64,000 nt of DNA from Campylobacteraceae bacterium (GTDB lineage: Bacteria; Campylobacterota; Campylobacteria; Campylobacterales; Campylobacteraceae). The DNA is taken from positions 62,001 to 126,000 of the forward strand of contig JAISGD010000001.1 of assembly GCA_031263195.1 (NCBI GenBank). The letters are read 5' to 3'. Of the stretch, positions 52,688 to 56,453 are shown in pieces. The notes beneath the pieces are model-generated. The model saw only the letters and a list, made by a program, of their open reading frames with translations, was not told the origin of the DNA and made no database searches. Made by a program: the position numbers and the translations under genes. Positions within the stretch are counted from its first letter, which is position 1. Each line of letters opens with the position of its first letter.

Positions 52688-54006
52688 CTATAACTCTTGC
52701 CAATAAAAATAGGGATAACCATTGTTTTTATTGCTCTCTATTTTCCAAGGAGCCGTGTTGTTATCTCCAAACTGCCAGCCAAGACCGCCTAAACCGTCGC
52801 CCTCTATTGCGTCGCTATAAGTCTCTTGTATTTTTAGTTCGGCTTCTGTTTTGTCTGTTCCATGATAACTTATATTGCCACTGTTTGAAAAACTGTTTGT
52901 TGCACCATCGTAATTTACTCCTCCTGTCATATTATCTAACGCAAAATTGTTTGAAACAACAGAGTTTACACTACTGGTACCAATATAACCTACAACACGA
53001 CTTGTATAATTGCTTCCATTAACCAAACTATTGATTGCGATATTATTTGAGATATTTGAACCATAATCAATATACCCTGCTATACCGCCTATATACTTGT
53101 TGCCACTGATATTTCCAATTGAGTAAGTGTTGGTTATATTGCTATAGACGGCAGCTTGCCCTGCAATACCGCCGACTTCCCCACTACCATTAATATTTCC
53201 AATTGAGTAAGCGTTGATTATACTGACACACTCAGTACCTCCTACAATACCGCCAACATGAGTTATTCCATTGATATTTCCTAATGAGTAAACATTAGTT
53301 ATGAAGCTATCTTCCAAATATCCTACGATACCACCAACACGATTGTCACCTCTAACGCTTTTTCCTTCCGCTATTTCAACTCCAAGATTGCTTATTTTGG
53401 CTTTGTAAGTAGTATAACCAAAAAGCCCTACATAAGTATTAAGCGGTCTATTTATCCAAAGATTTGTTATCTTATATCTGTTGCCGTTAAAGACACCCGT
53501 AAATACATTTGGATAACTTCCTATCGGTATCCAGCCGTCACTGTCAAAACCAGCTTCGTTTTCGTTTAATACTATATCGTTCAAAAGAATATAGTTTCCG
53601 GCAAGGTCGGTACTGATAGCTGCCAAATCATCTTGAGAAGTTACCTCAATGACATTTGGTACTGCGTAAAAGTTTACGCTTTTATCTGTTAGAGTATAAG
53701 AAGTTACCGATAAACTGCTATTTGCAAAATACCAGTTGCTGATGCCGTACGCTTGGTTAAACAATATTTCATGACCTGACGGCAGATTGTCATATTTACC
53801 TAACAAATCCAAGTTTTCATCATAAAAACTTACAGAGTAAGTTGTAATCGGAGAGTTATTTGCATTTGACGAACTTCCTCCACCTCCACCGCAACCAACT
53901 AAAGAAAAACTAAAAAAGAGAGTTAATAAGAGAGAGAGAGAGAGAGAGAGAACGCTTTAAACTTAAATAATAATAAAGCTTTAAAATTAGTCGTCGAAGA
54001 CAACAT
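52688..54006 (-). CDS. Phase-variable GLUG-repeat surface lipoprotein, frame OFF in this sequence
   Basis: The body (stop at 52688) has GLUG-type repeats: VGGIVGYLEDSFITNVYSLG, VGGIVGG...INAYSIGN, VGGIAGQ...ITNTYSIGN and IGGIAGYIDYG, and ends in YPYFYWQEL. The frame is open upstream through a Gly-rich start and lipobox LVGC (Cys at 53893-53891) and a leucine-rich h-region, but has no start codon there before a TAA at 53959-53957. An ATG at 54006 with AAGGGG five bases upstream begins a fitting n-region (MLSSTTNFKALLLFKFKAF) in another frame. Both meet in a (CT)11 tract. With 10 or 13 units they join; with 11 the ATG frame stops at 53925-53923. A TTG at 53812 gives only a signal-less 374-residue piece. 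Probably a surface adhesin. Confidence 0.8.
53929..53950. repeat. (AG)11 dinucleotide tract, slipped-strand switch
   Basis: Eleven AG units on the plus strand, (CT)11 on the coding strand, within the signal-peptide codons of the GLUG lipoprotein gene. Loss of one unit or gain of two restores the frame. No other dinucleotide run of this length was seen in the window. Confidence 0.9.
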
Positions 54007-54174
54007 ATAGACCCCTTGTAGTTTGAGATATATTCATGAAAAATAAATTTTGGATATTATATAAAGATTAGAATTAAATTAATATAAACTACTTAATGAA
54101 ATATTTTATTCGGATAAATTCGCGTGGCTTGGATTTTAGCTTTTTTGCATGTGCTGCAAAAGCTCTTGATAGTT

Positions 54175-54406
54175 TTATCTCACTATTTTGATTTGTAAAA
54201 TATTTTGCGCTTTTAGCTCATCTATCACGATACTGCCATGAAGATTTGGGACCAAATTTCGGAGATAAAAATGCCCCCGCTGCCGAACTTGCGTTAAGAG
54301 CGGGGTCATCTTTTTCGATAATAACGGTATTTAATCCCTCAAGTTTAGCGTGATATGCCGCCGTTACGCCGGCTATTCCGCAGCCAACAACCGCGACGTC
54401 ATACAC
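54175..54406 (-). pseudogene. Decayed FAD-dependent oxidoreductase (N-terminal remnant)
   Basis: From ATG 54406 the first 62 codons encode the ADP-binding beta-alpha-beta motif VVGCGIAGVTAAYHA, IIEKDD and AGAFLSPKFG of the DAO/FAD oxidoreductase type, then stop at 54218. A second frame over the same end reads HGSIVIDELKAQNILQIK and stops at 54175, which looks like another piece of a coding sequence. An internal deletion plus frameshift of a roughly 400-residue protein is the simplest reading. Its ATG overlaps the glyS stop by 8 bases, so it was once coupled to glyS. Confidence 0.65.
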
Positions 54407-56453
54407 TAATTTCCTTAATATCCGCTATCGATTTAAACGCTTTATAGATAGAAGCTATGATATTTAGGCGATTTTGCTTGATTTTTTGGTCGTCGACATT
54501 AACCATAACATTATCAAAAAACGTATCGATAAAAGGCTTTAAGGCAAAAAGTGCTTTTAATTTTTCATCAAAATTATTGTACTCTTTGGAGAGCGTTTTA
54601 TTATACGCCTCAAAAAGCGCTTTTTCGGCTTCGTCTTGCAAAAGCACTTCGTATACGGCGTGTTCGGCGTCGCAATTTATATCTTTTATGATATTTGCGA
54701 CTCTTTTAAACGTTGAGAAAACCTCTTTAAAACTCTCCTCTTGAGAGATATTTTTCAGTACTTCAATCTTTTGTGCAATCTTTACTATATCTCTTTCGCC
54801 GCCCTCAATAACGGCGGTTATGATAGACGAATTCACATTATCGAATAGTTGATAGAGTCTTTCGATAAAAAAGCTCTCAAGCTGCAATATATCAAAAGGA
54901 GAGTAAAGTGCGCAAAGCTCTCCAAAAACGGTTCTTATATTAAAATTAAGGTTGTATTTTAAAACGATTTTTATTATGCCGTTCACGGCGCGGCGCAGAG
55001 CGAATGGATCTTTTGTGCCTGTAGGAATTTTACCTATACTAAACAGAGCCATAAGAGAATCCACTTTGTTGCTAAGAGCTACAATCGCGCTAAAAAGAGT
55101 GCTTGGAAGCGCGCTTTCTTCGTTGTTTGGCAAATACTGCTCTTTCAAAGCCAACGCTAACATTTTATCCTCTTTAGCCTCCAAAGCATAGTAGTATCCC
55201 ATAACGCCTTGAAGTTCGGGAAATTCGCCCACCATTTCGCTAAGCAAATCCGCCTTCGCCAAAGTCAAAGTTCTTGCCAGCAGAGCGTTTAACCCGTCCT
55301 CGTTCAAATCTTCTCTTTGTGCCAAAAACGCCTTTTTGTTAGCGTTCGCGAGATACGCCCCTATACGCTCTTCTCTGCGCGATTTATCATAAAGCGAACC
55401 CAAACCTTCAATGTAAACGATAGATTTTAATCCCTCGGTTTGTAACCCTTTTTTCAAATCGTTTTCATAGAAAAACAGAGCGTCGCTAAGTCTTGCATGT
55501 AAGACTTTCTCATTTCCTTTGATTATCAAAATATAGTCGTTGCTAACGGCGTTTGAAACGACCACAAAGTGATTGCTTAAATTGTTATTTTCAAAAACGG
55601 GAAAATAGCGCTGATTTTCTTTCATTGAAGTTATAATAACTTCCGGAGGCAGTTTTAAAAACAGTTCGTCAAAATTTCCCATTAAAACCGTAGGATGTTC
55701 GGTAATGGCGACAACTTCATCAAGTAGTCTCGCATCGTGCTCTATAGTTACATCATTTATTGCTTCCATAGCATCCATTTGCGAAAGGATTTTTTCTCTG
55801 CGCTCATCTTGTGAAAGCACGATAAAACCACGTTTTAACTCTTCAAAATAGTTTTCAGGTGTACTGAATGTAAATTTATTTGCTGTGAGCGAGCGGTGAG
55901 GATATGTAAAACTATTTGATTTAACACCAAAAACCTCTATCTGTAAAGCTTCATCGCCAAGCATTACCGTCACCCAGCGAACAGGTCTGATAAAACTCTC
56001 TTCGCAATTTCCCCAACGCATCGATTTACCGAAATTTAAAGATTTTAAAAAATTCTTAAGCATATTTTCTATCAACTCTTTAGACTCTTTACCTTCAATA
56101 TCTTTTTTATAATAAAGCACGATTTTATCGTTTCTTTCGGTTCTTAAGAGTTCATTTACTCCAACTCCGCATTTCTTGGCGAAACCTATAGCTGCCGCTG
56201 TTGGTTCACCGTCAATAAAAGCACTCTCTTCAGGCGCACCAAAAAATTCTTCAAAATGGTTGGGTTGTTTGGTCAAAAATTCTTTATGCCACAAAACAAG
56301 GCGGCGAGGTGTGTAAAAAAACTCAAAATCGCTCTTAAGTTCATTGAGCTCCAAAATAGCATCCCATTTGGGTTTTATATTTGGAAATTCCTTCAGAAAA
56401 GGGACAGCCGGTAGTTCCTCTACGCCGATTTCAATTAATAAGGGTTTTTGCAT
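54399..56453 (-). CDS. glyS: Glycyl-tRNA synthetase beta subunit
   Basis: 684 residues from the ATG at 56453; a GTG five codons upstream is in frame but less likely. N-terminal LLIEIGVEELPAVPFLKEF, FYTPRRLVL near 55, SMRWG near 160, RWVTVMLG, PHRSLTANKF and the HD-like and anticodon-binding C-terminal region (TGTKDPFALRRAVNGIIKI near 480) are family hallmarks. The beta subunit binds tRNA and supports the separate alpha subunit; glyQ is not in the window. Confidence 0.96.
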   Translation of the reverse strand: MQKPLLIEIGVEELPAVPFLKEFPNIKPKWDAILELNELKSDFEFFYTPRRLVLWHKEFLTKQPNHFEEFFGAPEESAFIDGEPTAAAIGFAKKCGVGVNELLRTERNDKIVLYYKKDIEGKESKELIENMLKNFLKSLNFGKSMRWGNCEESFIRPVRWVTVMLGDEALQIEVFGVKSNSFTYPHRSLTANKFTFSTPENYFEELKRGFIVLSQDERREKILSQMDAMEAINDVTIEHDARLLDEVVAITEHPTVLMGNFDELFLKLPPEVIITSMKENQRYFPVFENNNLSNHFVVVSNAVSNDYILIIKGNEKVLHARLSDALFFYENDLKKGLQTEGLKSIVYIEGLGSLYDKSRREERIGAYLANANKKAFLAQREDLNEDGLNALLARTLTLAKADLLSEMVGEFPELQGVMGYYYALEAKEDKMLALALKEQYLPNNEESALPSTLFSAIVALSNKVDSLMALFSIGKIPTGTKDPFALRRAVNGIIKIVLKYNLNFNIRTVFGELCALYSPFDILQLESFFIERLYQLFDNVNSSIITAVIEGGERDIVKIAQKIEVLKNISQEESFKEVFSTFKRVANIIKDINCDAEHAVYEVLLQDEAEKALFEAYNKTLSKEYNNFDEKLKALFALKPFIDTFFDNVMVNVDDQKIKQNRLNIIASIYKAFKSIADIKEISV

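What the first reader, a model, noticed from the sequence alone, without database searches (positions are those of the whole stretch)
52688..54006. Phase-OFF contingency lipoprotein switched by a (CT)11 tract
Seen directly: an ATG with a good ribosome-binding site at 54006 leads into (CT)11; the GLUG-repeat body, with a lipobox LVGC, is open on the other side in a different frame. Eleven units put the ATG frame into a TAA at 53925-53923; ten or thirteen units join start, h-region and lipobox seamlessly. This is the design of a slipped-strand phase-variable surface protein. Dinucleotide contingency loci are unusual in Campylobacterota, where poly-G dominates.
Basis: seen in the sequence. Interest (0 to 1): 0.82.

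Follow-up and report, generated by a model that had tools for sequence, protein, structure and literature searches.

The report
Slippage-switched surface lipoprotein, one of dozens
A gut-type relative of Campylobacter has a surface lipoprotein gene held out of frame by an 11-unit CT repeat, and its genus carries at least 33 genes with the same slip-prone start fused to unrelated surface proteins, a repertoire of on/off coats not reported in the papers we could search.

Summary
ATG 54006, RBS AAGGGG, a (TC)11T tract at 53951-53929, and an open GLUG-repeat lipoprotein body in another frame (lipobox LVGC 53902-53891, stop 52690-52688). Eleven units end at TAA 53925-53923 after 27 codons; ten units give 438 codons.

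It is not a one-off. Whole-genome searches and ORF modelling found 33 loci in 10 genomes of the genus with the same plan: RBS+ATG, a short leader, a CT tract of 6.5-15.5 units in the signal-peptide core, then a lipobox. At every locus only one of three phases gives full length. Eight are ON as assembled and 25 OFF, all with intact bodies. The leader is shared between unrelated passengers (GLUG solenoid, RCC1 propeller, an unknown ~200-aa family). Leaders cluster by genome, not by passenger.

The mechanism is known: H. pylori oipA/sabA/hopZ/babA switch through 5' CT repeats. New here are the lipoprotein products, the interchangeable leader and the breadth. Switching in cells was not observed (no reads available).

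By-product: a second design, (GA)n inside an upstream leader ORF that in one phase stays open to the start of a surface gene (11 of 11 tested); possibly the more novel finding.

The parts
54056..54061 (-). -10 element TATAAT, 55 nt before the ATG
   Evidence: sequence; TATAAT lies 51-55 nt before the ATG in most sister loci whose upstream DNA is held
54012..54017 (-). ribosome-binding site AAGGGG
   Evidence: sequence; AAGGGG or AAGGAG at nearly all sister loci
53923..54006 (-). OFF-state ORF at n=11: ATG to TAA, 27 codons
53952..54006 (-). leader coding MLSSTTNFKALLLFKFKA, the signal-peptide n-region shared by sister loci
53929..53951 (-). (TC)11T slippage tract coding the SLSLSL core of the signal peptide
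53891..53902 (-). lipobox LVGC
   Evidence: Cys is the only invariant column of 27 aligned bodies
52688..53956 (-). open body frame (422 codons stop to stop): end of signal peptide, lipobox, poly-Gly linker, GLUG beta-solenoid
53270..53347 (-). GLUG repeat, 21.1 bits (cut-off 20.5)
   Evidence: C27:115270-115347
53105..53188 (-). GLUG repeat, weak, 16.3 bits
53045..53104 (-). GLUG repeat, weak, 17.1 bits
54116..54424 (-). remnant of a DAO-family FAD oxidoreductase (start and end kept, middle deleted, internal stop) between glyS and the lipoprotein; neighbour, not part of the switch

Best explanation
A phase-variable (contingency) gene for an exported lipoprotein. Shown from sequence: the CT tract codes the hydrophobic core of the signal peptide, and its unit number sets the frame between the only usable start and the lipobox plus GLUG body; n=1 mod 3 (10, 13) gives a 438-codon pre-lipoprotein, while n=11 (the assembled state) and n=12 stop at 27 and 32 codons. 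Shown by comparison: the same switchable leader precedes at least 32 other surface-type lipoproteins of the genus. Inferred: slipped-strand mispairing in replication adds or removes CT units; ON cells lipidate the protein at Cys(LVG|C) and display a beta-solenoid; the mixed ON/OFF states at many loci give each population a combinatorial surface repertoire, and recombination keeps the leaders alike within a genome.
For: Tract and frames. Tract far beyond chance. 33 sister loci, exactly one full-length phase each, 8 ON / 25 OFF, not different from one third (binomial P=0.36), as random phase predicts. The same leader with a short (TC)4 tract at G000:C3 is in frame with an intact ORF, and GLUG lipoproteins of G000 without a tract have ordinary in-frame starts. 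Purifying selection on OFF/OFF pairs. Model pLDDT 80.5; best PDB match 3n6z, annotated as a putative IgA1 protease of Bacteroides ovatus, TM 0.58/0.69. Leader identity 0.75 for the same genome with a different passenger, against 0.58 for different genomes with the same passenger family; 0 of 2000 permutations reach the genome effect, 1539 of 2000 the passenger effect.
Against: No reads could be examined, so unit number was never seen to vary at this one locus. The genomes are draft assemblies, and n is a consensus value. Translation from ATG 54006 and surface exposure are not shown. The GLUG match of the whole protein is below Pfam's cut-off (15.9 against 20.5). The start of the G006 locus is poorly defined.
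Confidence: 0.88

Rival explanations
1. Decayed gene: the frameshift is a fixed mutation and the locus is a pseudogene.
For: OFF as assembled; the adjacent DAO gene is a true remnant.
Against: The 412-codon body is intact and conserved (dN/dS about 0.44 against G004). The frame break lies exactly at the tract at 25 loci in different species, with the bodies beyond it open; genuine decay would scatter.
Confidence: 0.05
2. Assembly artefact: the true tract is in frame and the assembler miscounted CT units.
For: Short-read metagenome-type assemblies; several sister contigs end in the leader.
Against: A 23-base tract fits well inside a read. AG tracts of similar length inside a TetR-family ORF are in frame 4 of 4, and eight sister loci are in frame.
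Confidence: 0.05
3. Switching is mainly by recombination: leaders are exchanged between expression sites and bodies, and the tract is a homology patch as much as a slippage site.
For: Contig C30 ends with another leader, n=10 and in frame, joined to 97 bases identical to this body (118-base match to C27). C10 and C13 share a 119-base leader start before different bodies, and G008 C5 and C14 put two leaders on one body start. Leaders are homogenised within genomes. H. pylori babA/babB recombine in a similar way (PMC3960876).
Against: Contig ends at a k=119 fork are also expected from recent paralogues or chimeras. Random ON/OFF phase at 33 loci still requires slippage. This rival could also act together with slippage.
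Confidence: 0.2

Closest known systems
H. pylori Hop adhesins switched by 5' CT repeats (oipA/hopH, sabA, hopZ, babA/babB)
   Same: CT dinucleotides in the 5' (signal-peptide) coding region of an exported surface protein; slippage toggles full length and early stop; paralogues recombine (PMC3960876, PMC10564699).
   Different: Products there are outer-membrane adhesins; here lipoproteins with a lipobox and GLUG, RCC1 or unknown passengers behind one shared leader. No sequence relationship was found.
Campylobacter phasome (poly-G tracts)
   Same: Same phylum; the genus here also carries G>=8 tracts (13 in the window's genome).
   Different: 91% of Campylobacter SSRs are poly-G/C and only 44 dinucleotide tracts were listed (PMC6321876); TA repeats are called unexplored (PMC8355987).
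GLUG-motif proteins and the GLUG-containing region of IgA1 protease structures (3n6z, 6xja, 7uvl)
   Same: GLUG repeats; predicted beta-solenoid with a similar fold.
   Different: No protease domain in the window protein. A proposed adhesion role for GLUG proteins in a cockroach-gut archaeon (PMC9723798) is itself untested.
Neisseria opa (CTCTT repeats in the signal peptide)
   Same: Pyrimidine repeat in the signal peptide, multi-gene family (from memory).
   Different: Pentamer, not dinucleotide; beta-barrel product. Not tested here.

Membership tests
SSR-driven phase-variable (contingency) gene | long SSR, unit not a multiple of 3, in the 5' coding region | tested here: met
   (TC)11T
SSR-driven phase-variable (contingency) gene | unit gain or loss toggles full-length and truncated product | tested here: met
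   n-1 438 aa, n 27 aa, n+1 32 aa; same at 33 loci
SSR-driven phase-variable (contingency) gene | variable unit number within the population | tested here: inconclusive
   6.5-15.5 units across loci; C30 carries n=10 before the same body start; no reads
SSR-driven phase-variable (contingency) gene | switching and altered expression in cells | not testable with these tools
   needs reads or reporters
Bacterial lipoprotein | n-region, hydrophobic core, lipobox [LVI][ASTVI][GAS]C | tested here: met
   MLSSTTNFKALLLFKFKAFSLSLS..LVGC in the n=10 model
GLUG (PF07581) | GLUG repeats above Pfam's cut-off | tested here: inconclusive
   one repeat 21.1 bits against 20.5; whole protein 15.9
IgA1 protease | metalloprotease domain | tested here: not met
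   no peptidase family in Pfam scan; similarity limited to the repeat region
H. pylori Hop family | outer-membrane Hop protein related in sequence | tested here: not met
   no Hop or porin family in Pfam scan; lipobox present

The most novel reading that the evidence does not exclude
The genus runs a second, different slippage switch beside the signal-peptide one. (GA)n lies inside an upstream leader ORF (M-I-K-I-x-L-R-x-F-x-RERERD-x-LKRxLN). In one phase the leader stays open up to, or overlapping, the start codon of a surface gene; in the other two it stops at about 20 codons, at TAA codons inside the conserved motif CTTAAAAGAAGCTTAA. Expression would then depend on translational coupling or relief of Rho-type polarity. 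Together the two designs would form a modular phasome of surface proteins. Evidence.
Probability: 0.55. Interest if true: 0.8.

Novelty: new variant of a known kind. Interest (0 to 1): 0.6.

Why it matters
It shows a large dinucleotide-driven repertoire of switchable surface lipoproteins in an uncultured Campylobacterota genus, a group in which phase variation is described mostly for poly-G tracts and pathogens. One slip-prone leader used with GLUG, RCC1 and unknown domains suggests a general expression module, which can be tested in existing metagenome reads. The leader-ORF tracts would add a route by which a repeat can switch a gene without lying in it.

Tried and rejected
A first Pfam call used a wrong frame, and one glyS locating script had a wrong pattern. 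My first open-frame control for the leader ORFs (37 of 73) counted mis-called starts of the genes themselves; the refined control still contains unannotated coding sequence and is conservative. A G008 search for a body start used a mistyped pattern, repeated properly. A termite-gut origin for the genus was considered from the record names, but the termite study read (PMC9137090) used SPAdes with k up to 71 while the records are named k119, so the host is left open. My motif-based passenger classes were replaced by phmmer clusters. Searches for papers on repeat-switched leader ORFs gave nothing matching; absence from this library is weak evidence.

Full report
Observation. On the minus strand an ATG at 54006 with AAGGGG five bases upstream opens a frame that enters (TC)11T at 53951-53929 and ends at TAA 53925-53923. 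The long open frame is 53956-52688, beginning after a stop just before the tract, and carries the lipobox LVGC at 53902-53891. A modelled loss of one unit joins start, core and lipobox into 438 codons; gain of one gives 32 codons. The body frame has no start codon before the lipobox, so the OFF state yields no exported product. (CT)7 is not expected at all in shuffled sequence.

The locus in its genome. The window is C27:62001-126000 of a 1.79-Mb, 32-contig genome. That genome has about ten CT tracts of seven or more units. Six sit in the same leader: C27 (this one, OFF), C2:38250 (OFF), C10:141583 (ON), C10 end (OFF), C13 end (ON) and C30 start (ON). C3:27.0 kb has the leader with only (TC)4, in frame: a natural 'locked' version. 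Other GLUG lipoproteins of the genome have no CT tract in the signal peptide and ordinary starts.

The genus. Pattern searches over 14 genomes of the genus gave 61 tracts. Thirty-three, in ten genomes, have start, leader, tract of 6.5-15.5 units and lipobox; at all 33 exactly one of three phases gives full length, 8 ON and 25 OFF. G008:C68 is a 34th by eye, ON, missed by my lipobox pattern. The ON share does not differ from one third. Tracts inside a TetR-family ORF in four of the genomes are all in frame, the expected result where a tract is not a switch and a control on the assemblies.

Passengers. Bodies fall into a GLUG-type cluster of 18, an RCC1 cluster of 4 (Pfam RCC1 to E=5e-72), a cluster of 3 without Pfam match, and four singletons. 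Leader similarity follows genome and not passenger. So the leader is a module whose copies are homogenised within a genome. At the slot between glyS and the P-type ATPase, G000 has this GLUG gene and G005 a CT-switched gene with an unrelated passenger; after glyS, G004 has two GLUG genes without CT tracts. The neighbours are conserved and the occupants exchanged.

Product. An AlphaFold2 model from ten relatives (mean pLDDT 80.5, pTM 0.82) is nearly all beta, with a repeat core above 90. The closest solved structure is 3n6z, a Bacteroides ovatus protein annotated as a putative IgA1 protease (TM 0.58/0.69); IgA1 protease repeat regions follow. No protease domain is present. A surface-exposed, adhesin-like solenoid is the likely role; that is inference. 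An adhesion role has been proposed for GLUG proteins of a cockroach-gut archaeon (PMC9723798).

Selection. NG86 dN/dS between this locus and G004:C14:22338, both OFF, is 0.44; other OFF/OFF pairs listed range 0.26-0.54. The values are rough at this divergence but do not fit abandoned genes.

Possible recombination. Contigs C10, C13 and C30 end inside or just past the leader. C30 carries another leader, n=10 in frame, then 97 bases identical to this body (118 bases shared with C27). C10 and C13 share exactly 119 bases before different bodies. G008 C5 and C14 put two leaders before one body start, again sharing 119; no further copy of that body is in the bin. Relatives' record names carry k119, so 118-119 is probably the assembler's k. 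Either recent paralogues or a population in which leaders and bodies are recombined would produce this; it stays open.

A second switch class. Most remaining tracts are (GA)n on the coding strand in a short leader ORF 140-370 nt upstream of lipoprotein or outer-membrane genes. In the long phase the leader is open to the start codon of the surface gene, often overlapping it (ATGA at L017, L150, L160), or fused in frame (L129, L154); in other phases it stops near codon 20. All 11 loci with a clear downstream start reach it. Shuffled spacers do so in 0.5-17% of cases, joint P about 3e-18; a crude genomic control gives 27-33%, for which 11 of 11 is still of order 1e-6. The spacers are C-rich and G-poor (C 0.14-0.23, G 0.06-0.11; controls about 0.15 and 0.17), compatible with Rho loading. 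An anchored motif search found such elements in 9 of 14 genomes, with no match of the reversed pattern. The two orthologous elements at G000:C1 and G002:C3 have no surface gene behind them. The 11 loci were chosen because a start was clear, so the shuffle P is somewhat optimistic.

Verdict. As a mechanism it is a known kind (H. pylori Hop genes: PMC3960876, PMC10564699), rare in Campylobacter (PMC6321876, PMC8355987). The variant lies in lipoprotein products, one interchangeable leader, and scale.

Noticed in passing
G000:C30:33078 (L017), C31:117794 (L018), C10:31544 (L129); L128, L133, L141, L142, L150, L160, L163, L170: (GA)n tracts inside upstream leader ORFs which in one phase stay open to the start codon of a lipoprotein or OMP gene: 11 of 11 tested loci. 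Possible second kind of phase switch.
   Followed up: partly
L014, L162, L164, L157 (G000:C24:35650, G004:C14:100099, G012:C2:16914, G013:C116:8207): TetR-family regulator (AefR-like C-terminal domain) with an AG tract of 8-9.5 units coding RERERE, in frame in all four genomes.
   Followed up: partly
G000 C10 end, C13 end, C30 start; G008 C5 and C14 starts: Contigs break inside the shared leader at 118-119-base overlaps; C30 joins a different leader (n=10, ON) to this locus's body start.
   Followed up: partly
window 54116-54424: FAD oxidoreductase (DAO) remnant with internal deletion after glyS; the intact 368-aa gene is at the same place in G004.
   Followed up: yes
G001:C46:10831-28038 (L172): Tandem array of about a dozen GLUG lipoprotein paralogues.
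   Followed up: no
L188 (G005:C189), L184 (G004:C18): The slot after glyS holds different occupants in different species, including a CT-switched gene with an unrelated passenger in G005.
   Followed up: partly
G007:C32:18077, G007:C46:23248, G008:C14:2046, G005:C144:605: RCC1-repeat (beta-propeller) lipoproteins behind the same CT-switch leader.
   Followed up: partly
genus-wide: G>=8 tracts are also present (13 in G000, up to 41 in G009), so poly-G and dinucleotide tracts coexist.
   Followed up: no
G000:C10:141588-141616: The signal-peptide leader of one CT locus, read on the other strand, matches the leader-ORF motif GAGAG..CTTAAA..TTAA; the two switch elements may share an origin in opposite orientation.
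   Followed up: no
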